64,000 bases of DNA. Source: Streptomyces mutomycini. GTDB taxonomy: Bacteria; Actinomycetota; Actinomycetes; Streptomycetales; Streptomycetaceae. The position numbers were made by a program, and so were the translations under genes. Position 1 is the first letter of the stretch. Each line of letters starts with the position of its first letter. The DNA is taken from positions 1 through 64,000 of the forward strand of contig NZ_MAPV01000031.1 in NCBI RefSeq assembly GCF_001700505.1, in the 5' to 3' direction. Shown here piece by piece: positions 39,178 to 50,642 of this stretch. Under the pieces are notes generated by a model, which had not been told where the DNA came from, made no database searches, and saw nothing but the letters and a program-made list of their open reading frames with translations.

Positions 39178-39822
39178 ATGTCCGACAACTTCGCCACCCA
39201 CCTGCTGAGCCTCACCACGGGACGGACCGAGACGGTCCTGGACCTGACCGAGCACTGCGAGCAGTTCCTCACCCGCGCCGCTCACGGCAAAGACGGCCTG
39301 CTCAACGTCTTCGTACCCCACGCCACCGCCGGAATCGCCATCCTGGAGACCGGTGCGGGCAGCGACGACGACCTCCTCGCCGCCCTGCAGACACTCCTCC
39401 CCGCCGATGACCGCTGGCGCCACCGGCACGGGAGCCCCGGCCACGGCCGCGACCATGTACTCCCGGCACTCGTACCACCACACGCCACCCTGCCGGTCAT
39501 CGGCGGGAAGCTGGAGCTGGGGACTTGGCAGTCTGTCTGTCTGGTCGAGTCGAGGGTCAGCAACTTAGACAACTCTGGGGCAGCAGAGTCCCTGGCTGAG
39601 CTGAAGCCGTCGAACTGCACGCCAGCCGCTGCCGAGTGGGACCGCGGCACCGCCTGGAGCGTCGGCCGCCGCCCGGGAGGGATAGGTATCACGCTGTACG
39701 GAGACAATGCCTGCTGCCTGGTGTCTTTGTGTGAGTGCACCTTATGTGAGGGCAAGCGTGCCAAAGCGAGCACGCGTGAGTGCCACGTAGAGGGCGCGAT
39801 GGTCGGCCTGCGCGGGGTCTAG
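39178..39822 (+). CDS. YjbQ-family protein with a replaced C-terminus (chimeric)
   Basis: Residues 1-123 match YjbQ (UPF0047, reported thiamine-phosphate-synthase-like activity): FVPHATAGIAILETGAGSDDD, HRHGSPGHGRDHVLPALVPPHATLPV, and GTWQSVCLV. Family members end about 15-20 residues later with a final strand (RxVRLSFL-like). Here, after codon 123 (39,546), the frame runs into unrelated sequence for another 91 residues and ends at 39,822, antisense to the last 81 bp of the helicase gene. The native C-terminus is therefore lost. The protein may be inactive. The junction marks the left edge of the accessory island. Confidence 0.75.
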   Translation: MSDNFATHLLSLTTGRTETVLDLTEHCEQFLTRAAHGKDGLLNVFVPHATAGIAILETGAGSDDDLLAALQTLLPADDRWRHRHGSPGHGRDHVLPALVPPHATLPVIGGKLELGTWQSVCLVESRVSNLDNSGAAESLAELKPSNCTPAAAEWDRGTAWSVGRRPGGIGITLYGDNACCLVSLCECTLCEGKRAKASTRECHVEGAMVGLRGV

Positions 39823-41223
39823 GCCGAGCGCGAGGGCCGAGGCGTCTGCCTCGCTCAGCTTTATGGCTACCTTGTTCCACTCTCGCCCTTTGGACTGGTG
39901 GCAGGTCAGGCCAGGTACCAATTCGGCATCGCCAAGGCGGAGTTGCAGAAGAGCCAGTGCGCGGAGCGGCTTGCGCCCGTGCTGTTGCGCAGCGACCGCC
40001 GGAACGCAGTGGGCCAGACCGTCTATAAGGGTCTGCCACACCAGTGACGGCGGGATGGCGCTTTTGAGGTGAGTGATGGCCGTTTGCAGGTAGGGGTGGA
40101 GCGTTGTCGCTAGTGCCTCTTTCTCGATGTTGAGTGTGACCAGAGCATCGTGCAGGAATACCGCCTGTTGGCCGAGCGCGTTCTGAGTGATCTCATTGAG
40201 AAGCAGGGTGCATATTGCTTCCTGGACCTGACCCACGCCGGGCTTGATGGCGAGGGGCAGGACGCGAGGATCGGAGCCCCACAGAGTCTTCCATCTGTGT
40301 GCTAGGACTACATCGGCGTCGTGGGCAGAGCCAGGCGGCAGTGTCATGGGCATCCGCCGGCGCAGCCGCCGCATGAGCCATGCCTGCCTGTCGTTGCCCC
40401 ACCGGAATGACTCGTCCAGGTGGTGTGGGGTGAAGCCGCTCTCGCTGATGTACTCCTTCATGGCGGCGGGACGTGCACCTCTGAACTGGTAGAGAGCTTG
40501 CCAGGGATCACCGACCAGTGTGAGGAAGCTACACCCCGACAAGGCAAGCGAGAACACGTCTCGGTCCAGGTCGTTAGCGTCGAATACTTCGTCCACCGTC
40601 AGTGAACGCACGTTGCACTCAAAGTAGGAGATCAGCGCCTGCCTCGCGGAGTTTCCCGTCAGTGCTCCTTGCAGAGCCTCCCTTACGTTGTCGTGAGTGC
40701 ATCTGCCGTCAGAGACAGCTCGCTTGAAGTCCGTAGCTGAAGGATGGCTCGTGGACTGAGATTCGTTGACGGTTCTGACGACGACCTGACCTTTGTCGAC
40801 CTGCAGTACGGGCCTTATACGGCCAGACTTCGTAGGGAGCGTGGTCCGCCAGGTGTCCAAGACCTCAAGTTCTGTGTGCCCCCCCGGCCAGTGCAGAACG
40901 CCGTAGTGGAGCAGATGGAAGAGAAGATCGCACAGTAGGGTGTCCAGGGTCACAATGCGATGCGGCCAGGTCACTGATGACGGGCCCCATTGCCGGATGA
41001 CACGCGTTCGCAGTTCCTCGGTGGCTGACCTGGTGAAGCTGACTGCTACGACTGCCCGACGGTCGGTTGGAGCGGTAAAGCGGTGCAGGCCGAACCGCAG
41101 AGCTGACACGGTGGTCTTTCCGGAGCCGGGCGCTGCTTCGACGTAGACGCGGGGTTGCGGACTGTCACAAGCCGTGAGCTGCTGTGGTGTCAGGGTGCGA
41201 ATTCCGTTGCTGCCGCTAGGCAT
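39742..41223 (-). CDS. gajB: UvrD/Rep-like helicase, Gabija GajB-like
   Basis: This 493-aa SF1 helicase has Walker A (EAAPGSGKTTVS, K36), motif Ia (VVAVSFTRSATEELR), motif II (VDEVFDANDLD), motif III (LVGDPWQALYQFRGA) and motif VI (LYVALTRAR). Length and motif set match GajB (about 494 aa in the Bacillus cereus system). The ATG at 41223 overlaps the stop of the upstream OLD/TOPRIM gene by 8 bp, which indicates coupled translation; a longer open frame upstream is non-coding. In Gabija, GajB is proposed to be activated by DNA ends produced during infection and to assist GajA. Base composition is visibly lower in GC than its chromosomal neighbours. Confidence 0.78.
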   Translation of the reverse strand: MPSGSNGIRTLTPQQLTACDSPQPRVYVEAAPGSGKTTVSALRFGLHRFTAPTDRRAVVAVSFTRSATEELRTRVIRQWGPSSVTWPHRIVTLDTLLCDLLFHLLHYGVLHWPGGHTELEVLDTWRTTLPTKSGRIRPVLQVDKGQVVVRTVNESQSTSHPSATDFKRAVSDGRCTHDNVREALQGALTGNSARQALISYFECNVRSLTVDEVFDANDLDRDVFSLALSGCSFLTLVGDPWQALYQFRGARPAAMKEYISESGFTPHHLDESFRWGNDRQAWLMRRLRRRMPMTLPPGSAHDADVVLAHRWKTLWGSDPRVLPLAIKPGVGQVQEAICTLLLNEITQNALGQQAVFLHDALVTLNIEKEALATTLHPYLQTAITHLKSAIPPSLVWQTLIDGLAHCVPAVAAQQHGRKPLRALALLQLRLGDAELVPGLTCHQSKGREWNKVAIKLSEADASALALGLDPAQADHRALYVALTRARFGTLALT

Positions 41224-43456
41224 TGCTTTGCCCTTGTGGCCACTGAACGGATGTCTGTGCCTCTTTTGGCCAGCTTCCCGGTCGGCGGCTTGCTGTGTAA
41301 TCGTGCTGCATCGGGCGTGCGCGTGGAAGATCGTCCCAGGATGTGGCGTCGTCCGCATCGACTGATGCTGACACGGGCTCTCGCTCCTCGTCGCTGGGTT
41401 CCTGTTCCTGCCAGAACGCGGGATCGTCAAGCTCGTCGTCCCAACCAGGGTCGTCTGGCGAGTCGTCCCAGATGTTGTCCGGCGCGAGCCACGCGGGCGG
41501 TTCCATGGCGTACTCATCGGGCGTGAGGTCGGCAGTGGCAGTGTGTGGGGCAGCAGGGTAGAGAAAGTCGAAGAGCTTCTGGAGGTGGTCGGGTACGGAG
41601 ACACGGGATGTGCTGTCGGCCGCTTCGCGATCGCTGTCGTTCGTTTCGCGGAGCAGGGCGGCAAGTGTCAGAGCGAACTCTGCCTTTCGCCGTGCGCCAC
41701 GTCCTTCCTTGACAGCTTCCTCTCCGTCCTTGCCAGTCCTTCGGCTACCGAAGTAGGCGCGGACGCTGTCGGTGGTGACTTCGGCCAACGGGTGCTTAGG
41801 GTCCATCATTTGCTGGGCTTCTTCGATGAGGTCCTCGTTGCCGGGAGTGATCGCGGGCTCGAGGGTGGGGTGGCTGATGAAGGCTTGGACGACTGATGCG
41901 TCGTGCTCGATTACCCACTTGGGCGTATCGCGCGCTCTGTCGAAGGGGAGGTCGCTGTCGCTGTCACGGAGGATGGCAAGCTTCGTGCACAACTCTGCCC
42001 CTGGTGTCGCCAGGAGATGGGCGGCCCATTGACCTACTTTGGTGCCCATGGGGACGATGCTCAGGGCGTCTATGAAGGCTTGCTTCGCTTCGTCCTCTGC
42101 TGCCCAGGCTCGGCCGAATTCCCGCACGACAGCGCCTTCAGTCACCCCTTCGACCAGGAGTAGGCGTTCGGCGAAAAGTGCCGATGAACGGCTCGCGTCG
42201 AGATGCAGTCTGGCCATGCGCAGCGTGGCATCGCGATGCTGGGGTGGGAGGACGTCTTTGACGCAGCGGCTAACGCTTCCGTAGCTGGTGCGGCGCACGA
42301 CGACGAGTTCCGCAGGGTCGCATGCGGTGATGATGTCGGTCGCGTGACTGGTAAGGATCACCTGCAGCTCGGGTCGCGATTTGACGGTCCTGCGCAGGTA
42401 ACGCACCAGCGAGTGCTGTAGCTGGGGGTGGAGGTGTGCTTCGGGCTCCTCGATGATGACCGTCGCGTGAAAAGGGGCCGAGGAGAAAAAGGAGTCTTCC
42501 TCGGAAGCCGCTTCGGCTTGTGCCTGCGCCAGGTTCTCGAAGGCTTGCCTCACCTGCTCATCCGCTGAGGGGACCTCATCATCGCCGGTTCCTTCCGGCG
42601 GGTTCGGCGAAGAGAGGGGGACTTCGGTGGAGTCCGGTATTGCAGCCAACGTCACCGCAATATGTAGGAGGTTGACATACCCCAGCCCGGAGACCTCCAG
42701 GGGCCGGGCTGCGGAGCGGCCTTCGATGACAGCGAGCATGATTTCCAGGACGCGCGCGAGGTAGGTGTCGTCGATGACCTGGCCACGGACGTAGGGCCAT
42801 TGTGGACTTACCCCCGCAGACAACCTGCCCAGGTGTTCTCCGATTCGAGCCTCTACGGCATCGATCAAGCTGTCCTTTGCAAGGTCCTCCAAGAGCCGAG
42901 AGGCGCGAGCCCGTAGAGCCACTAGGTTCCGGCTGCCGTGGAGTTCCTGCTGGCGCGCCCGTAGCAGCTCGACCAGGATGCGTACCTCGCGTCGGGCCAG
43001 TTCGTCCAGCGGATGACGCCAGGCGGGAAGGTAGATCAATTTGAAGCGGTCGTTCCGCTCAACTCCGCGGCTGTTGGCCAGGCGAGAGGTCACCGTCCCT
43101 AGTTGACGGTGAAGGGAAACACTCCAAGATTCGGCTTCTCCACCGAGGCGCCGGTGCCCCGTGGTGTGAATCTCGCGGCCAAGCCGACCCTCCGCAGCGA
43201 GGTCGTCCCCCAGCGCATAGGTGATGTCCACGCTGCGCTCCACGCCGGCATCAGGTGATGCCAGAACGGCCGAAGTCGGCCTCGGCAGCACGGGAAACCG
43301 GCTCCCTGGATGTGCGAGGTAGAGAGCGTCCGTGAGCGTCGTCTTGCCCGCACCGTTCGCACCGATCAGCACGCTGAATCTGCCGGGTAGGTCGCAGCTC
43401 ATTGGAGTCTCTGCGCTCGCGCGCAGACCGCTCACCTTCACGCGGCTCAGATGCAT
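41216..43456 (-). CDS. gajA: OLD-family ATPase/TOPRIM nuclease, Gabija GajA-like
   Basis: This 746-aa protein has an ABC-type ATPase N-terminal half: Walker A GANGAGKT (residues 32-39), Walker B VIIEEPEAHLHPQ (333-345), and H-loop LTSHATD. It is followed by a TOPRIM nuclease: LLLVEGVTEGAVV (435-440) and LRDSDSD (498-502). This is the architecture of class 2 OLD nucleases. With the overlapping UvrD-like gene it forms a Gabija-type pair, an anti-phage system in which GajA nicks DNA when nucleotide pools fall. It is longer than typical GajA (about 580 aa); an acidic Asp/Glu-rich tail of about 120 residues accounts for much of this. The ATG 43456 has GGGGGA 6 nt upstream. Confidence 0.76.
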   Translation of the reverse strand: MHLSRVKVSGLRASAETPMSCDLPGRFSVLIGANGAGKTTLTDALYLAHPGSRFPVLPRPTSAVLASPDAGVERSVDITYALGDDLAAEGRLGREIHTTGHRRLGGEAESWSVSLHRQLGTVTSRLANSRGVERNDRFKLIYLPAWRHPLDELARREVRILVELLRARQQELHGSRNLVALRARASRLLEDLAKDSLIDAVEARIGEHLGRLSAGVSPQWPYVRGQVIDDTYLARVLEIMLAVIEGRSAARPLEVSGLGYVNLLHIAVTLAAIPDSTEVPLSSPNPPEGTGDDEVPSADEQVRQAFENLAQAQAEAASEEDSFFSSAPFHATVIIEEPEAHLHPQLQHSLVRYLRRTVKSRPELQVILTSHATDIITACDPAELVVVRRTSYGSVSRCVKDVLPPQHRDATLRMARLHLDASRSSALFAERLLLVEGVTEGAVVREFGRAWAAEDEAKQAFIDALSIVPMGTKVGQWAAHLLATPGAELCTKLAILRDSDSDLPFDRARDTPKWVIEHDASVVQAFISHPTLEPAITPGNEDLIEEAQQMMDPKHPLAEVTTDSVRAYFGSRRTGKDGEEAVKEGRGARRKAEFALTLAALLRETNDSDREAADSTSRVSVPDHLQKLFDFLYPAAPHTATADLTPDEYAMEPPAWLAPDNIWDDSPDDPGWDDELDDPAFWQEQEPSDEEREPVSASVDADDATSWDDLPRARPMQHDYTASRRPGSWPKEAQTSVQWPQGQSNA

Positions 43457-43845
43457 GGCAGATCCCCCGATCGTCTTGATCACTCTGCGAACATCATTGC
43501 TCAATGATGGGCTGCGTGGGCACCTCTTTTGATCGCTGCGCTACCGGAGTCTCGTGGCGTCTTGCTCAGCCCATCGGCTATTGAGGTATGTGTGCCCCTT
43601 GCTCTTTCCTCCTGACGTCTCCCCGGCTGCTTGGCTGGCGTGGCGTTGGTGCGAGCTGCGCGCGGATGTCGGCACGGCTCCGGGTACGCAGCGTCGAGAT
43701 AGGCAGTCGATACGGAGGCGGCAGCATGCGGCGAGGGGAGCGCCACGTGGGACGCCGGACCGTGGGCGTTTCTCCAACGAACCCCCGCTTGAGATAAAGG
43801 CCACTTGAGCCGATGGCCCGTAAGTGAGGCCGGTTCGTGCACATC
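43457..43845. other. 389-bp intergenic region between the TIR operon and the Gabija pair
   Basis: No open frame here looks coding. The segment must contain the end of the five-gene operon and any promoter for the nuclease-helicase pair. An 18-bp palindrome lies near its left end, described separately. Confidence 0.45.
43492..43509. promoter_or_regulatory. Palindrome upstream of the GajA-like gene
   Basis: CATCATTG-CT-CAATGATG is a perfect 8-bp inverted repeat with a 2-nt centre, ending 36 bp upstream of the start codon of the nuclease gene. Its size and A/T content suit an operator for a dimeric helix-turn-helix regulator. The XRE protein of the adjacent operon is one candidate; this is inference. 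Confidence 0.5.
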
Positions 43846-44292
43846 TCAGTCTTGCACCGGGACACTGGTATCACGGACATGAAAGGTGAGCCCCGTGATC
43901 CGGCCTGACTGGATCACAGGGCCGTGCTGAACTCCACCGTTGACGTTGTTGTATACAAGTACCGGGCGGGCCACGGATGTGTTGACCAGCTGCCGGAGAG
44001 AGGTCAGCGCCTCATGCAGCTCGGCGCTGGTGACGGAGGCCGTCTGCAGAAGTCTGTACAGGTCGGTGTGCCATCGGTCCGTGATCTCACGGGTGGCTTG
44101 CGCGTCGCCGGCGTCGGCGGCAAGCAGCCTGGTCCGTGTGGCGTCAAGGTCGGCGATCATGGTGCCGCCTGCATCAGCACGCGAGAAGAGCCGTCCGACG
44201 ACCGCACGCGCCTGTGTCCAGGAGTCGGTGACCATCAGTGAGACCAACGTGGTTGCTCCCGAGGCGGCAAGCGCGGCGAACTCGGTTTCCAT
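43846..44292 (-). CDS. Small conflict-system-associated protein with Gly/Gln-rich tail
   Basis: This 148-aa protein starts with an amphipathic, largely hydrophobic segment (EFAALAASGATTLVSLMV) and a helical middle region. It ends in a glycine-rich tail, NNVNGGVQHGPVIQSGRITG (residues 115-134), followed by LTFHV. Similar tails occur on many streptomycete proteins of predicted NTPase conflict systems, and they resemble short amyloid-like signalling motifs; this is recollection plus inference. It is the last gene of the five-gene operon, 17 bp after the two-TM gene, with AGGAG 7 nt before its ATG. Role: perhaps an adaptor or effector-associated partner. Confidence 0.68.
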   Translation of the reverse strand: METEFAALAASGATTLVSLMVTDSWTQARAVVGRLFSRADAGGTMIADLDATRTRLLAADAGDAQATREITDRWHTDLYRLLQTASVTSAELHEALTSLRQLVNTSVARPVLVYNNVNGGVQHGPVIQSGRITGLTFHVRDTSVPVQD

Positions 44293-44309
44293 TGCTTCTT
44301 CTCCTAGTG

Positions 44310-45392
44310 TCAGAGCCCGGACGTTGGTCGGTTTGCGCCGCCCGGGCTGTCCGGAGGCTCCCCGCCGTCTGGGGTGAAGGTCGCTGGCGGGTCGAACCTG
44401 CGCACCAGATCGTCAGCCGTCTCATGCTGGTCCTGGTCCCTGATGGCGTCGGCGAACTGCTTGGCCAGCAACCTCCTTTGGGTGTCCGCGTCCTCGAGGT
44501 TGAGAGCGGTCAGCGCGTCCGCGAGGTGGTCCGCGGCCGTCGGCGCTCGGCCGAAGGGGGCTGCCTGCCGATCCGCAAGCACCTGGCCGTCCTCCACCTC
44601 ACGCGGCTGCGGGATGAGGTCCCGCAGCCGTTCGGGAACGTCGGTGTCGTTGGCCGCGGAAGTAAGCCGGGCGAGCAGGCCGAGGTCTTCCACAGTCCTC
44701 TCGACCTTTTCGTCGTTCTTGGCTAGCCACCAGACCACGGCGCTGCCGGTGTCCTTCAGTACGTCTTCGCCCAGGTACTTGCGCTTGCTCTGCTCGTACT
44801 TCCGCTGGTGCTCCCAGACTGCCTGGTCCTTGCGTACCCCGGCGAGGCTGTCCAGGCGTTCCTGGTCGTGCTCGTGCAGGGTGAGCCGCACATCCTCCGC
44901 CATGGCGTGGAGCTGCCCCGTGCTGTCAGGAAGCAGCGAGCTGAGCGCACCGCTCAGCTCGTGCTGGACGAGTGAGACCCGACCGGGCTCCCGCTGCTCG
45001 GTGACCACTCGGGCACGGTCCAGTACGGATTCGACGGCGAGTCCCGCCGGGTTCAGTACCCGGCCGGGACGGGAAGCGTCGAGGGCGTACCAGCGAACAG
45101 TTGCGGAGATCAAGAAGTCGTAGTCGGGCCATTGACTGGGAAGTGCCACTCGGCTGACGTGGTGCTCCGTGCGCTCGATGGGAGCCGCCGTGTGGTGTTC
45201 CTCGAAGGCGACTGGCACGGAGCCGCGGCGACGCCCGGCGATTTTGAAAGCCACGCCGGGGGTCGCGACGAGGATCACCGCAAGGGGCGGCCAAGCCCAT
45301 GTGGGCCACTGTTCCGTCAGGCCGAAAATGGTCAGCACCAGACCGCACAGGATGGTGAGGAAGACGGTTGTCGTCTTGTGTCCGGTGGTCAC
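44310..45392 (-). CDS. Two-TM protein of the TIR operon
   Basis: This 360-aa protein has two N-terminal transmembrane helices (residues 8-25, TTVFLTILCGLVLTIFGL, and 35-49), a basic loop, and then about 300 cytoplasmic residues. The soluble part is helical, rich in charged residues, and contains EHQRKYEQSKRKYLGEDVLK and leucine-rich segments that could form a coiled coil. I recognise no named domain. It begins with GTG overlapping the stop of the P-loop gene by 4 bp (GTGA). It may anchor the TIR/NTPase complex to the membrane or form a pore; that is inference. Confidence 0.66.
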   Translation of the reverse strand: MTTGHKTTTVFLTILCGLVLTIFGLTEQWPTWAWPPLAVILVATPGVAFKIAGRRRGSVPVAFEEHHTAAPIERTEHHVSRVALPSQWPDYDFLISATVRWYALDASRPGRVLNPAGLAVESVLDRARVVTEQREPGRVSLVQHELSGALSSLLPDSTGQLHAMAEDVRLTLHEHDQERLDSLAGVRKDQAVWEHQRKYEQSKRKYLGEDVLKDTGSAVVWWLAKNDEKVERTVEDLGLLARLTSAANDTDVPERLRDLIPQPREVEDGQVLADRQAAPFGRAPTAADHLADALTALNLEDADTQRRLLAKQFADAIRDQDQHETADDLVRRFDPPATFTPDGGEPPDSPGGANRPTSGL

Positions 45393-47392
45393 GGTTCGGT
45401 CCCCCTGGTTGATTCCGCGCGAGGCGGTGTGGTCGGGCGGCTCAGGCGCTGAGCTGAGCAGATTTTCTGAAGTAGCAGGTCGGTAGTGAGCGCGGCGCGC
45501 GAGGATCCGACGGGCGCGGTGCGTTCGGCGTCGCGGGCGCTCGCGTAGAGCGCGGCGAAGGCTGCACCTCGTCGGCCCTCGCACCGGTCGGCGGCACTGA
45601 CGAGGAGTTCGAGCAAGAGGTCACCCTCGTGCCCGTCATCAGCCGCTGCGTGCATCCAGCGTTCCGCGTATGGTTGCCAGGTCGGCCGAGGCAACCCGTT
45701 CAGTACGGCGCGCCAGCAGGTGGTCACGGAAGACTGCACGCTCTCTTCCTCCACCAGCGTGCGTCCGTTGTCGTACGGGTCGGTCAGAGCTTCGGCGACT
45801 CCGACTCGCAGGAAAATGCCGAGGTCAGCCCGCGAGAGTTCGGAGCGTGCCAGCCGGTGAAACAACCTACGGCGCAGTCGGTGGCTCGTCTCCACCAGGT
45901 CGCTCAGCGCATGCAGCGCGCTGCCGGTGCTGTGCTCGCGGCGAGCCAGGTAGTACAGCCGGAGCATGGCTTGGTCGGGGTGGCCGGCTGCGACGACGTC
46001 GGCACAGACCTGGACCAGGACCTGGGCGAATTGCTCCTTGAGTTGCTTGCCGGTGCACCACTGGTAGATCCAGCCTCGGAAGCTCCGTGCTTGTACCCGA
46101 TCACCGAGACCACAGGTGAGTGCTTGGACGGCTGCCTCCAGCCCAGCCTTGCTCGCGGCCGTCGAGCCCCAGGCTTCGGCCAGCGACGCCAGTCCTTCCG
46201 GGCGACGCGTCCGTAGATACTCTCCGGCCAGCTTCGCCACGAGGCCGTCGCGGAGTTCCTGGGTGATGTGCGGGCCGTTCAGCGCCATGCTGCGCGCGGT
46301 CCACATGCCCAGATACTGGCGAAGGTCGGGCATGTGGTCCCAGAAGTGGGCGCGGACGGTGGAGTCGTGGTCCAACTCCCCGAACCGCACGTGACCGTCC
46401 GGTCCGACACCGGCGGAGATTTCCACCAAGCGCTCTGCGAGATCCTTACGCTGCAGCAGCGGAACATCGTCGGGCGGCAGGCCCACAGTATCCAGCAGGA
46501 GTTGAGCGGCGCGATGGATCACGTCGGCGTGAGCGCCGTGGAGCATGGCGACGGTGATCAGCAGTGCCCTCTGAGGACTGTCGCCCAACGTGGCGACGAG
46601 GGTGGCGACCTCTTCTCGCCGGTCGGCCCGCGCCTTGTGCGCAGTCGTGCACCACTGCGCGAACCCTTCGTCCCGCGCGGCGGCCTCGCGCGCACGCCGC
46701 ACCAGGTCGGCGAAGTCCGCTATCTCCCGCAGTGGCCTCTGCTCGTTGACGAATTCCGTGACTGTGGCATCCGGGCGGAGGTAATGCTCGCTCGGCACCC
46801 CATGCACACGAAGGTGCCGCCGCAGGACCCGCGCGCGGCATGGCTGCTGAATCTCGATCCTGTACTGCTGCAGGTCGGAGTCGAGGATTCCCCCATAAGG
46901 CATGACGACCACGAGATGTGCGTGCTGCTCGTGTACCGCCTTGCGGAGGGCGGAGAGATCGGCCCGAGCGGCGGCCCACCGTTCGACCTCAGCGGCCGAC
47001 ATATCCAGCAGAAGGCGGTCGCCGGCTCCGACCAGCTCCGGGTCGGTGAGGGGCAGTTCGCCTTCCTCGCCTGGCAAGAGCTCCCGGAAGGCGCCGACGT
47101 CCGTGTGGTGTTCGCGTAGGAGTACACGGGCCGCGGAAGTCCGGCCGCTGCCAGGTGCGCCGTCCAGAATCACGGTGCCAGCGCGGGCCAGTTGGAGGCG
47201 GGCGTTCCCCATGCCGGGCGGAGCGACCAGCACGCGCCGAAGCCACGCGAGCTGGTCATCGGCGACGCGCCGGAAGGAAGGTCTGCCCGAGCTCCGCTGG
47301 TCGGCGCCGAAGGTGACGTACATGTCCCCGGTGCCGTTGTGCAGGGCCCCGCTCGTGCTGGTGACCCACGTACTGCCGCTGCGCTCGCTCAC
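45389..47392 (-). CDS. STAND-like P-loop protein with N-terminal signalling motif
   Basis: This 667-aa protein contains a Walker A-like loop GAPGSGRTS (residues 78-86), in which Arg replaces the usual Lys, and a Walker B-like strand DRLLLDMS (125-132). About 400 residues of helical repeats follow. Its extreme N-terminus reads TSGALHNGTGDMYV (13-26), very like the TIR protein's C-terminal TGPVHTGQGDIYQ. The layout (motif, NTPase, alpha-solenoid) suits an NLR-like sensor whose partner is the TIR protein. It overlaps both neighbours by 4 bp (GTGA). It is probably the sensor of the operon; no experiment supports this yet. Confidence 0.7.
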   Translation of the reverse strand: MSERSGSTWVTSTSGALHNGTGDMYVTFGADQRSSGRPSFRRVADDQLAWLRRVLVAPPGMGNARLQLARAGTVILDGAPGSGRTSAARVLLREHHTDVGAFRELLPGEEGELPLTDPELVGAGDRLLLDMSAAEVERWAAARADLSALRKAVHEQHAHLVVVMPYGGILDSDLQQYRIEIQQPCRARVLRRHLRVHGVPSEHYLRPDATVTEFVNEQRPLREIADFADLVRRAREAAARDEGFAQWCTTAHKARADRREEVATLVATLGDSPQRALLITVAMLHGAHADVIHRAAQLLLDTVGLPPDDVPLLQRKDLAERLVEISAGVGPDGHVRFGELDHDSTVRAHFWDHMPDLRQYLGMWTARSMALNGPHITQELRDGLVAKLAGEYLRTRRPEGLASLAEAWGSTAASKAGLEAAVQALTCGLGDRVQARSFRGWIYQWCTGKQLKEQFAQVLVQVCADVVAAGHPDQAMLRLYYLARREHSTGSALHALSDLVETSHRLRRRLFHRLARSELSRADLGIFLRVGVAEALTDPYDNGRTLVEEESVQSSVTTCWRAVLNGLPRPTWQPYAERWMHAAADDGHEGDLLLELLVSAADRCEGRRGAAFAALYASARDAERTAPVGSSRAALTTDLLLQKICSAQRLSRPTTPPRAESTRGTEP

Positions 47393-48144
47393 CGATCGTC
47401 GCCCTCATGTTCTTGGGCTGCACCGAACCGGTGCCTGATGTCACCGTGGTGATCGCCCTCGAAGTACGTCATCCCGTTGCCCGAGAAGTGCCGGCCACCC
47501 GACTCATTGCGGGAATTCTGATAGATGTCGCCCTGGCCCGTGTGCACGGGCCCGGTGGAGGCTTTGATGACGGTGCCACCGACGTCGCCGGTGAAGTCAC
47601 GGCTCTGTACGGCCGTGCCGCTCACTTCTTCGATCGAGTTGGTCACCGAGTCCGGTGTGAGTGGGGAGACGGCGTCCCGGTCCAGGTCGCGCAGACCCGG
47701 GACGATGTCGGCCACCACGTCACCAAGGCGTTTCAGGCCTGCCTCGGTGTCATGTGTGCTGAACGGGACGGACTGGATCTCTGTAAGCCAGGCCAGTTCG
47801 TCAGGCAGGTCGGCTTTGTTCAGCCGGTCGGTCTTCCGGCCGTCGAGTACGGGGACGACGGCAAGCTCACAGTCGAACGCCTCCATGATCTCTTTGCGTA
47901 CCCAGTCCTCGGGGTCGTGCAGCCGGCTCTGAAAATTCGTCCAGTCCGGGCCGATGACAGCCAGAACCACCGCGCTGCGACGCAGGCCCGTCAGCAGTTC
48001 ATCGGGATATGCCTGACCGGGAGCGATGGACTTCGAGGCTCGGAAAATCCGGCCACTGCCGAAGCGACGCGAGAGCTCCTGGTCGATCAGGGCGGCCGTC
48101 TTGTCGCCGTCCCCTGTGCGGTAGTTGATGAATACATCGGTCAT
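47389..48144 (-). CDS. TIR-domain protein with C-terminal signalling motif
   Basis: This 251-aa protein starts with a complete TIR domain: MTDVFINYRTGD, RIFRASKSIAPGQAYPDEL, VVLAVIGPDW, and EDWVRKEIMEAF. The Glu at residue 85 aligns with the catalytic Glu of SARM1-type NADases (DWVHKE), so NAD+ cleavage is plausible. Residues 191-236 are Gly/Asn/His-rich with TGPVHTGQGDIYQN and GNGMTYFEGDHHGD, resembling the P-loop protein's N-terminus. I chose ATG 48144 with GAGAGG 8 nt upstream; the frame is open to 48477. It lies 14 bp after the XRE gene and overlaps the P-loop gene by 4 bp. Confidence 0.87.
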   Translation of the reverse strand: MTDVFINYRTGDGDKTAALIDQELSRRFGSGRIFRASKSIAPGQAYPDELLTGLRRSAVVLAVIGPDWTNFQSRLHDPEDWVRKEIMEAFDCELAVVPVLDGRKTDRLNKADLPDELAWLTEIQSVPFSTHDTEAGLKRLGDVVADIVPGLRDLDRDAVSPLTPDSVTNSIEEVSGTAVQSRDFTGDVGGTVIKASTGPVHTGQGDIYQNSRNESGGRHFSGNGMTYFEGDHHGDIRHRFGAAQEHEGDDR

Positions 48145-48158
48145 TTCAAAGCCTCTCT

Positions 48159-49451
48159 TCAGGATGCGGGAGGGCGCGTTAAGGTGCCGAGGCGCGGAGC
48201 AAGCCGGCGTACTGCAGCGTGCGTGGGATGCCGAGCCAGGAGACGGGCGAGACGCCGAAGATCGATCGTGACGGTCGCGGACCGGACCGTGGCTACCCCG
48301 ACAAGAAGCGGTTCCGTCACAGCGCACGCGTGGTCGATCTCGCCGTCCGACGCATAGGCCAGAGCCCGTCGTATCCCGTACCGCACCTGGGTGCGGACCG
48401 CGTCCCGAGAGACCAGGGCGAGCTGCCGGTCCAGTTCCGCAGCTGCCTCCCGTGGACGGCCGAGGTCGACCAGGCACCAGCCGGTGACCATGCCGACCGA
48501 GTCTGGCAGGTGCATGCTGCCGATCACCGGAGTATCGGCGCCGCCTTCCTTGCGGACAAGAAGCGTGCGGGCCCGGTCCAGGGCGCGCAGACAGGCGTCA
48601 CGATCGCCTGCCAGTGCATGGCCTTGCGCCTCGCGTTGCGCCGCCAGCCCGCGGATCCGCGGTGGCAGCGCGTCGCTCTGGGCCCGCTGCGCCAGTGCGA
48701 TCGTCTGCGCCGCGTCATCCTGGTACAACGTGATCAGCGCTCTGCGGACCAATGCGTAGCCGCCCAGTGCGTGGTCGCCGCCGGCGGCTGCGAGATCCAC
48801 CGCGCGTTGGGTCCACCAGAGTGCCGCGTGCTCGTCGCCTGTCTCCTGCATCAGCCAGCCCACGTACTCGGCGTAGCGGGAGCCGAGCGCCAACAAATCC
48901 CGGCGGGTGCCGTCATCGACATGCAGGGACAGTTCCCGCAGTGTGTGTGTCTGGGCGATCAGGCCGGGAAGCAGATACCCGGGCTCGACGCTCTGCCCCA
49001 GACGCCGGTAGTGCGTGAACAGAGAGCGGGACGCCTCCAGCATGCCCGCACCTGCAGCAGGGGCGACCGGTCCCGGGCCGCCCATGCCCAATCTCATCAG
49101 CGATGCGGCGCCTGCCCCCACGACCTGTCGCCGTCCTAAGGGCTGAAACCAGCTCGGGCCATCCGGTGACAATTGCATGGTCCACTCCTCCTCATCGATG
49201 GCGTCGGGAGTCTGCACAAGCGGTGTGTCGGCAACAGGTTTGGTGGCCAGGGCGACGAGTGCTCCGTCGGCCTGGAGGACGGCGTCGCACAGACGGACGA
49301 GATCCCGGCTGGGAGCCTTGATGCCTCGTTCGACCTTGCTCAGCTGCGCCTTGCTGTAGTGCACGGCGCCGGACAGTGTGGTGAGGCTGAGTCCTGCGTC
49401 CAGACGACGCTTTCTCAGCTCCTCGCCGAACCCGGTGGACGGCTGTGGCAC
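48159..49451 (-). CDS. XRE helix-turn-helix regulator with TPR-like C-terminus
   Basis: This 430-aa protein has an N-terminal XRE domain (GEELRKRRLDAGLSLTTLSGAVHYSKAQLSKVERGIKAPS, about residues 8-48). A long helical-repeat region follows, as in many streptomycete helix-turn-helix/TPR proteins. It begins with GTG behind AGGAG. As the first gene of the operon it probably senses a signal through its repeats and controls the TIR, P-loop, two-TM and small-protein genes, all downstream with 4-bp overlaps or gaps of at most 17 bp. Confidence 0.85.
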   Translation of the reverse strand: MPQPSTGFGEELRKRRLDAGLSLTTLSGAVHYSKAQLSKVERGIKAPSRDLVRLCDAVLQADGALVALATKPVADTPLVQTPDAIDEEEWTMQLSPDGPSWFQPLGRRQVVGAGAASLMRLGMGGPGPVAPAAGAGMLEASRSLFTHYRRLGQSVEPGYLLPGLIAQTHTLRELSLHVDDGTRRDLLALGSRYAEYVGWLMQETGDEHAALWWTQRAVDLAAAGGDHALGGYALVRRALITLYQDDAAQTIALAQRAQSDALPPRIRGLAAQREAQGHALAGDRDACLRALDRARTLLVRKEGGADTPVIGSMHLPDSVGMVTGWCLVDLGRPREAAAELDRQLALVSRDAVRTQVRYGIRRALAYASDGEIDHACAVTEPLLVGVATVRSATVTIDLRRLARLLARHPTHAAVRRLAPRLGTLTRPPAS

Positions 49452-50642
49452 GGAACTCTCCTGACCGACCGTCCAGGCGAAGGCGTTCGCAGGTAAGAGT
49501 GCGGCAGTGCCAGCCGGACGGACAAGGCGATTGATGCTGTTTCCCGTTTCCTTCTCCGCAGGTGAGGGGCGCTACTCCCTGAATCGGGTGCTGTTTGGGG
49601 CGTGGTGACCACCGGGATGTTGCGCGTGCGCCCCCGCATCCGACCGAGGTCCACCGCCCCTATGCCGACGGCAGTTGGTTGGCGGTGACGGGATCCGGGC
49701 TGAAGCGCAAGCCGGTGTGCAACTGGCGGCACTCGTCGAGCGCAACCAGCAGGTACTCAGACTTGACCACCGGATGGGCGTGGCTGGCTGCCTCGAAGGG
49801 CATCGCGACTGGCGCCCAGGTGCGACTGCCAGTCGCTCGGGGCATCCGCACCATCCGGCCGTCCCGATAGAAGACCGTGCGGCCTGAGAGGTGTTCGGCG
49901 GCTATCCTGCAGGTTGCCTTAACGGAGTTTGGTGGACACCAACATCTCTAATAACAACCGTCAGGTGCGGTTGAGTTTCCTCGGCTAAGGGGGTCCGGCC
50001 GCGCCAAAATGAGCACCGCGTTTTCCCAGCCTGGTGGGCGAGCGGCCAACTGCTCCCCTGTCTGCTGGTGATCTTGCCTGAGCGTCCAACCAGCTGTATT
50101 CAGTGGTCGGGCCCGGCTGCAAACGCTCGCACCCTCGGCCAGACAGTGGCGCCAATGTCGCCCCACATCTATCGCCCTGCATCAGCAAGGATCCACCCTG
50201 GCCCAGCGGCCAGAAGCACAGCGCACACCATGCGGCTCATCGTGCGGACTCCTCGGCGTGCGCGGCGGCGACCATTCCTGGGGTGACGAGGGGCAACGGC
50301 ACTCCCAGCGGGCGAAGGAACAGGCCGACGCAGAAGGGGAAGCGATCAAGGCCGGGCCGACCGAGCAGGAGCCACCTCAAGGGCCCCCACGATGGCTCAG
50401 CCATGGCGCCTACGGGACCCAGTCCGTCCAGGCCCACGCCCGCGAGGTGCCCAGCGGCTGCGGCGCCCCGCCTTCGGGAACGTCCGGCAGACCATCGAGG
50501 AGTCTTCGCCGTTGCCAACCTCCTCGCTCGCGGTGAGAACCGCGACACGGTTCAACGGACGCCAGTTCGCCGAGCTCCCGGCGCGGCAGGGCGTCCCTGG
50601 GCCCCCTGGTGGGGGCCCGGGCGCCCAAACGGCCGGGGTGGG
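49452..50642. other. 1.2-kb region of degenerate sequence upstream of the XRE gene
   Basis: Only one short coding-like fragment (49660-49854) is evident. The rest has several short frames on both strands without family resemblance, and looks like eroded island DNA. The promoter of the TIR operon should lie in its first 150 bp. Confidence 0.4.
49660..49854 (-). pseudogene. Truncated protein fragment, unknown family
   Basis: A 64-codon frame opens at ATG 49854 and encodes protein-like sequence (VAMPFEAASHAHPVVKSEYL and LVALDECRQLHTGLRF). The same frame continues 29 codons upstream without a usable start (reading FYRDGRMVRMPRATG), as if the 5' end of a longer gene were missing. No function can be assigned. 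Confidence 0.38.

What the first reader, a model, noticed from the sequence alone, without database searches (positions are those of the whole stretch)
45389..48144. Shared Gly/His motif on TIR C-terminus and NTPase N-terminus
TGPVHTGQGDIY (TIR residues 197-208) aligns with SGALHNGTGDMY (P-loop residues 14-25), identical at G, H, G, G, D and Y with hydrophobic matches between. Sharing a short motif at opposite ends of an effector and a sensor is the signature of homotypic, amyloid-like signalling, as described for actinobacterial NLR-associated motifs (RHIM/PP/BASS types, recalled). The small protein at 43846 carries a related Gly/Gln tail (GGVQHGPVIQSG).
Basis: partly seen in the sequence, partly recalled or inferred. 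Interest (0 to 1): 0.72.

Follow-up and report, generated by a model that had tools for sequence, protein, structure and literature searches.

The report
TIR–NTPase defence operon, paired motif
A conserved Streptomyces gene cluster, probably an anti-phage alarm, encodes an NAD-destroying-type TIR enzyme and a sensor-like ATPase that carry the same short peptide on facing ends and change it together in evolution, so the peptide most likely sticks the two proteins together, probably as an amyloid-like seed.

Summary
The peptide pair lies exactly where reported and is longer (16-20 aa). Its DNA pattern occurs only twice in the 7.07 Mb genome, at these two sites. Homologous loci from Streptomyces and other actinomycetes (41 plus 80 fetched, partly overlapping) nearly all keep TIR directly upstream of the NTPase, usually with a 4-nt start/stop overlap. 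Both ends carry the motif in 37/41 loci and in 73/78 scorable loci of the second set. Cognate pairs match each other far better than swapped pairs (p<=1e-5, even with NTPases <40% identical); control segments show nothing. The operon: XRE/NsdA-like regulator, TIR (SARM1-like, invariant Glu), nSTAND3-like NTPase with disordered head and helical repeats, two-TM SPFH-like protein and, in one clade, a Bell-like protein. In the window a Gabija system lies next to it. Best reading: a homotypic, probably amyloid-like receptor-to-effector link, like BASS Bell/NLR pairs but with TIR as effector; mechanistically a split Avs5. Corrections: the small protein's tail is a different motif; the Walker-A Lys is Arg; the motif is not RHIM-like. 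Fibril formation, NADase activity and defence are untested.

The parts
43807..49973 (-). discrete cassette: five genes on one strand
   Evidence: blastn to the closest relative (94%) covers exactly 43807-49973; five other relatives match about 43840-49588, with non-homologous flanks
48159..49451 (-). XRE-type HTH regulator with TPR-like part (NsdA family)
   Evidence: HTH_31 E=4e-12; NCBIfam NF053720 E=1e-51; homologue in 116/121 loci
47389..48144 (-). TIR effector, 251 aa
   Evidence: Pfam TIR_2 36 bits, cut-off 28; family profile hits SARM1 TIR E=2e-14
47890..47892 (-). TIR Glu85 codon, invariant in DWxxxE, aligned with the SARM1 DWVHKEI glutamate
   Evidence: invariant in 25-member alignment; DWxxxE in 118/121; PDB alignment
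47581..47640 (-). TIR tail block (i) NSIEEVSGTAVQSRDFTGDV, similar to the Bell-like protein's tail
   Evidence: HHalign probability 87-90% against Bell tails
47521..47568 (-). homotypic motif, effector copy: IKASTGPVHTGQGDIY (TIR residues 193-208)
47422..47502 (-). TIR tail block (iii) SGGRHFSGNGMTYFEGDHHGDIRHRFG, conserved, not present on the NTPase
   Evidence: alignment A2; the 22 aa after the motif show no cognate matching with the NTPase motif
45389..47392 (-). nSTAND3-like NTPase, 667 aa: disordered head 1-39, P-loop core, winged-helix-like part, helical repeats
   Evidence: nSTAND3 hit in 17/25 homologues, best E=1.6e-7; AF2 pLDDT 85.5 with residues 1-39 below 50
47318..47365 (-). homotypic motif, receptor copy: VTSTSGALHNGTGDMY (NTPase residues 10-25)
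   Evidence: conserved block inside an otherwise variable disordered head
47138..47161 (-). Walker A GAPGSGRT, Lys replaced by Arg
   Evidence: Arg in 115/121 homologues; alignment
44310..45392 (-). membrane protein: two TM helices plus SPFH-like domain
   Evidence: AF2 pLDDT 80; Foldseek prohibitin 1.6e-4, HflK/C 7.8e-4, stomatin 9.3e-4; present in 119/121 loci; no Pfam match
43846..44292 (-). Bell-like 148-aa protein; tail NNVNGGVQHGPVIQSGRITGLTFH at about 43879-43950
   Evidence: fifth gene in the window's clade; conserved tail in relatives; Bell assignment from memory of the published description
41216..43456 (-). neighbour: GajA-like OLD ATPase/TOPRIM (Gabija), not part of the cassette
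   Evidence: PADLOC GajA E=5e-42
39742..41217 (-). neighbour: GajB-like UvrD helicase (Gabija), not part of the cassette
   Evidence: PADLOC GajB E=2e-27

Best explanation
This is a two-component receptor-effector immune module in which a short homotypic motif replaces covalent fusion. The nSTAND3-like NTPase senses something, perhaps a phage product, through its C-terminal helical repeats and oligomerises, bringing several copies of its disordered N-terminal motif together (inferred). The cluster nucleates stacking of the matching motif in the TIR tail, probably as a cross-beta/amyloid-like assembly (inferred). TIR domains packed this way become active NAD hydrolases and stop or kill the infected hypha (inferred from the SARM1-like catalytic Glu). 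The SPFH-like protein probably anchors the complex at the membrane, and the XRE/NsdA-like protein probably controls expression (inferred). Shown here: operon conservation, the motif on the two facing ends, co-variation of cognate motifs, predicted disorder of the NTPase head, the TIR glutamate, and defence neighbours.
For: Pattern occurs only twice in the genome, both here. Both ends carry the motif in 37/41 and 73/78 loci; matched pairs beat swapped pairs at every redundancy level: 31 representatives below 50% identity 46.7 vs 32.2, z=8.4; 14 representatives below 40%, z=5.4; p<=1e-5. Control segments (TIR globular parts, flanking tail, flanking head) give z between -1.3 and 1.1. Other pattern hits are antisense, out of frame, low-complexity or unrelated. 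At sites with identical residues only 193/340 codons are identical, 172 expected from codon usage, so recent gene conversion is not the main cause. TIR-NTPase 4-nt overlap in 41/41 and 75/80 loci. AF2: NTPase residues 1-39 disordered. SARM1 is the nearest solved TIR. Gabija next door; a pPIWI-RE protein beside L061 and an nSTAND1-WD40 protein beside L063. Diverged relatives of the NTPase sit behind other effector-like genes with other tail/head pairs, e.g. Bell-like with RHIM-like TQVGGNQ.
Against: No experiment: fibrils, NADase activity and phage defence are all inferred. The motif is Gly/Asn/His-rich and not very hydrophobic. The Walker-A Lys is Arg, so ATP-driven oligomerisation may be altered or absent. 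Co-variation on the tree rests on few independent events (His/Asn: 4 of 6 independent pairs concordant, 0 opposite, sign test p=0.125). In many loci the cassette sits at a fixed core-genome site between priA and metK, which is also compatible with a housekeeping role.
Confidence: 0.66

Rival explanations
1. The motif is homotypic but not amyloid: the two peptides pair stoichiometrically, for example by beta-strand addition or a small glycine-rich fold, to hold TIR on the receptor.
For: All sequence evidence shows pairing or shared specificity, not the material state; very high Gly content and two nearly invariant Gly; few aliphatic residues.
Against: Position, length (about 20 aa), disordered setting and adjacent-gene layout match the published BASS description (PMC7889193), where tested motifs form fibrils; diverged NTPase relatives carry RHIM-like pairs in the same positions.
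Confidence: 0.2
2. Both tails bind the same third partner (for example the SPFH protein or a ligand), so they resemble each other without touching.
For: A conserved SPFH-like membrane protein is nearly always encoded next door (119/121).
Against: The SPFH and XRE proteins carry no copy of the motif. Reciprocal matching of TIR and NTPase copies is the expected result of direct homotypic contact, although a co-varying shared partner cannot be excluded from sequence.
Confidence: 0.1
3. The similarity reflects recent duplication or gene conversion of a short DNA segment, with no interaction.
For: Slight excess of identical codons at shared residues, 193 vs 172 expected.
Against: Conserved in about 110 fetched loci (sets partly overlap) with NTPases down to about 30% identity while the flanks diverge; codon identity is close to chance; cognate matching is absent in flanking segments.
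Confidence: 0.04

Closest known systems
Bacterial amyloid signalling sequences (BASS) with Bell/NLR pairs (Dyrka et al. 2020, as described in PMC7889193)
   Same: Short motif at receptor N-terminus and at effector C-terminus in adjacent or overlapping genes; mainly actinobacteria and cyanobacteria; the review states that BASS also occur, less often, with TIR domains.
   Different: Main effector is TIR, not Bell; the motif GPVHTGxGxxY was found only with TIR/NTPase pairs here; relation to BASS1-10 not tested; the operon adds XRE and SPFH-like proteins.
Avs5 (AVAST type 5), PMC12931631
   Same: NAD-consuming type of effector with an nSTAND3-type ATPase and C-terminal helical repeats; a weak Foldseek match to the Avs5 filament (9nc9, E=0.022).
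   Different: Avs5 has a SIR2 effector fused in one chain; here the effector is TIR on a separate chain joined by a shared motif, and the Walker-A Lys is Arg.
Effector-associated domains (EADs), Kaur et al. 2020, PMC7159879
   Same: Same coupling logic: a homotypic element on core protein and effector, with copies from adjacent genes closest to each other.
   Different: EADs are small folded domains; this is a roughly 20-residue motif in disordered tails.
SARM1 / bacterial TIR NADases
   Same: TIR domain with the conserved DWxxxE glutamate.
   Different: No fused SAM/ARM; activity not tested.
Thoeris (ThsB TIR)
   Same: TIR protein; 7/25 homologues hit ThsB models weakly.
   Different: No ThsA partner; the neighbour is an nSTAND3-like NTPase.

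Membership tests
BASS amyloid signalling motifs | same motif at receptor N-terminus and effector C-terminus encoded by adjacent genes | tested here: met
BASS amyloid signalling motifs | effector domain is Bell | tested here: not met
   effector is TIR; the Bell-like fifth gene carries a different tail
BASS amyloid signalling motifs | match to a BASS1-10 profile | not testable with these tools
   profiles and primary paper not held
BASS amyloid signalling motifs | forms fibrils and cross-seeds | not testable with these tools
   needs experiment
RHIM/PP/BASS3 | (V/I)Q(V/I/L)GxxN core | tested here: not met
   core absent from both copies (sequences); an RHIM-like TQVGGNQ occurs only in diverged NTPase relatives
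nSTAND3/STAND NTPase | Pfam nSTAND3 match | tested here: inconclusive
   17/25 homologues match, best 1.6e-7, but the window protein is below cut-off (16.9 vs 27.2 bits)
nSTAND3/STAND NTPase | canonical Walker A Lys | tested here: not met
   Arg in 115/121
nSTAND3/STAND NTPase | P-loop core, winged helix and superhelical repeats | tested here: met
   AF2 secondary structure in that order; the winged-helix label is my reading of H-E-E-H at 318-353
Avs5 | SIR2 effector fused to nSTAND3 | tested here: not met
   no SIR2 in the Pfam scan
TIR NADase | TIR fold with catalytic Glu | tested here: met
TIR NADase | NAD hydrolysis | not testable with these tools
   needs assay
SPFH/Band 7 | SPFH fold after N-terminal TM | tested here: inconclusive
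   Foldseek E 1e-4 to 1e-3 but global TM scores low, and no Pfam hit
Thoeris | ThsA partner | tested here: not met
   neighbour is the NTPase at 45389-47392

The most novel reading that the evidence does not exclude
The TIR tail is a two-motif adaptor: its GPVHTG motif is seeded by the NTPase, and its upstream VSGTAVQSRDFTGDV block in turn recruits the membrane-acting Bell-like protein, whose tail carries a related motif. One signalosome would then fire an NAD hydrolase and a pore former through two separate amyloid codes.
Probability: 0.25. Interest if true: 0.78.

Novelty: new variant of a known kind. Interest (0 to 1): 0.62.

Why it matters
It provides a large natural series of cognate motif pairs (95 loci below 95% NTPase identity) attached to a TIR enzyme whose expected output, NAD loss, is easy to measure. 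That makes it possible to test how specificity is encoded in homotypic, probably amyloid, immune signalling, and to ask whether fused effectors (Avs5) and motif-linked effectors are interchangeable. It also links TIR, nSTAND3-like, SPFH-like and Bell-like proteins in one actinobacterial, probably defensive, operon.

Tried and rejected
The motif as chance: rejected. The 43846 protein's tail as the same motif: rejected (HHalign 2-7%; shuffle tests). The motif in other Streptomyces proteins: inspected non-family hits were antisense, out-of-frame, low-complexity or unrelated; hits without a fetched locus were not read one by one. A TIR-Bell link by ungapped matching: not significant except in L174; profile comparison gives 87-90%, but the column-shuffle control returned no parsable scores and the first comparison used regex-picked blocks, so it stays a hint. 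Tree-based sign test of His/Asn co-switching: concordant but underpowered. Literature search for the motif string: no relevant paper; nSTAND3 with TIR returned only the Avs5 paper. Phage records: no NTPase homologue. First shuffle script timed out.
Full report
OBSERVATION. The match extends to 16-20 residues (IKASTGPVHTGQGDIY / VTSTSGALHNGTGDMY), and 1 of 20,000 shuffles of tail and head reaches its score. A degenerate DNA pattern for G..H.G.GD.Y is found twice in 7.07 Mb, both times here.

GENERALITY. In 247 genomes of the genus the same pattern is found in 15 genomes; the inspected hits outside this family lie on wrong frames or strands, contain a stop, or lie inside an unrelated membrane-protein-like frame. 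A relaxed pattern that admits GPVN hit 41 of 150 genomes; of the 27 new loci read, 17 or more belong to the family and the rest are low-complexity, antisense or unrelated. NTPase homologues occur in 73 of 247 genomes at E<=0.001, including weak hits from other families. They are rare outside the genus in a phylum-wide sample, but a GTDB contig scan also found Planomonospora, Streptosporangium, Frankia, Saccharopolyspora and others.

OPERON. In 41 loci (window plus L050-L089) and 80 more (L145-L224; some are the same strains) TIR precedes the NTPase. The NTPase start overlaps the TIR stop by 4 nt in 41/41 and 75/80 (three of the five exceptions involve broken or incomplete frames). An XRE/NsdA-like gene is found in 116/121 and an SPFH-like TM gene in 119/121. 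A Bell-like gene follows in the window's clade and a few others.

CO-VARIATION. A motif profile learned on set 1 was used to pick one site per tail and head without reference to the partner. Both sites exceed the 99th percentile of shuffles in 37/41 and 73/78 loci. Cognate pairs score higher than swapped ones: 44.7 vs 32.2 (95 representatives <95% identity), 46.7 vs 32.2 (31 representatives <50%), 46.8 vs 30.4 (14 representatives <40%), p<=1e-5 each. The strongest single column is His/Asn at position 12 (26/31 matched, 17.3 expected). Five TIR globular segments, the TIR tail before and after the motif, and the NTPase head after the motif show no effect. L068, L071, L074, L190 and L195 have lost or degraded the motif on one or both sides; at least L068/L071/L074 are related, so this may be one event. 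On a tree the His/Asn switch is concordant in 4 of 6 independent pairs and never opposite, too few for significance. Codon identity at shared residues is only slightly above chance, arguing for selection on protein sequence.

THE PROTEINS. TIR: Pfam TIR_2; nearest solved structures are SARM1, with DWVRKEI aligned to DWVHKEI; Glu85 invariant in the alignment. That this Glu is catalytic in SARM1 is established knowledge. NTPase: weak nSTAND3/AAA_16 in the window, nSTAND3 in 17/25 homologues. AF2 puts residues 1-39 below pLDDT 50, then a P-loop core, a short H-E-E-H part that I read as a winged helix, and helical repeats to about residue 650. Foldseek gives SAMD9 first (E=4e-4, low TM) and ARM/HEAT proteins, with the Avs5 filament at E=0.022. 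The Walker-A Lys is Arg in 115/121. Third gene: two TM helices and an SPFH-like domain, no Pfam family. Last gene: a 148-aa protein with hydrophobic N-terminal helix and conserved tail, which I call Bell-like from memory of the published description.

MOTIF SWAPS. Diverged NTPase relatives lie behind different small proteins: L111 and L228 with a tail ITQVGGNQ/VVQVGGNQ facing a head TQVAGDYEEHHH (RHIM/BASS3-like); L112 with VRQKVGTLRG facing VNQRVGTNRG (between 0 and 30 of 2000 shuffles reach the score, depending on word length and pair). This suggests that the NTPase family is a hub on which effector and motif are exchanged together.

CONTEXT. The window cassette has sharp edges (43807-49973) against relatives with different flanks, so it behaves as a unit in this clade. 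It is followed by GajA and GajB, a Gabija system. L061 has a pPIWI-RE gene and L063 an nSTAND1-WD40 gene alongside. Thirty-five other loci lie beside priA/metK/coaBC/gmk, a fixed site. No homologue in phage records; one on a large Streptomyces replicon.

MECHANISM. Shown: paired, co-varying motif on facing ends, in a predicted disordered head, in a conserved translationally overlapping operon. Inferred: homotypic docking; amyloid-like templating; TIR NADase firing; immunity. The Prion 2021 review (PMC7889193) reports BASS motifs mainly with Bell but sometimes with CHAT or TIR, so the kind is known; this motif, its nSTAND3-type receptor and the five-gene setting are, as far as I could search, not described. 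Avs5 (PMC12931631) offers the fused counterpart: SIR2, nSTAND3 and helical repeats with NAD depletion.

SECOND MOTIF. The small protein's tail does not match the main motif but resembles TIR-tail block (i) by profile comparison (probability 87-90%). All 9 representative loci with the Bell-like gene have a block of that pattern, against 17 of 44 without it (Fisher p=7e-4, not corrected for phylogeny). I treat this as a hint for a TIR-Bell link.

Noticed in passing
window 39742-43456: A Gabija-like pair (GajB 39742-41217, GajA 41216-43456) lies directly downstream of the cassette on the same strand.
   Followed up: partly
L111, L228: Related NTPases preceded by an effector-like protein whose tail ends in RHIM/BASS3-like ITQVGGNQ or VVQVGGNQ, facing an NTPase head TQVAGDYEEHHH.
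   Followed up: partly
L112, L229: A further tail/head pair in diverged NTPases (VRQKVGTLRG / VNQRVGTNRG in L112), with an uncharacterised small protein.
   Followed up: partly
L065-L074, L081 and others (35 loci): The cassette sits beside priA, metK, coaBC and gmk, apparently a fixed insertion site in many Streptomyces.
   Followed up: partly
L053 and L054 (same genome, about 20 kb apart): Two copies of the cassette; one has a truncated NTPase frame of 403 aa.
   Followed up: no
L182, L215 TIR tails: Expanded tandem-like repeats in the TIR tail (e.g. HYQGSAHYEGSAHYQNS; GDQVNGDQVAGGQVKADQV).
   Followed up: no
window 47422-47502: TIR tail block (iii) GNGMTYFEGDHHGDIRHRFG is conserved even where the paired motif is degraded (L068, L071, L074); function unknown.
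   Followed up: no
window 47138-47161: Walker-A Lys replaced by Arg almost throughout the NTPase family.
   Followed up: yes
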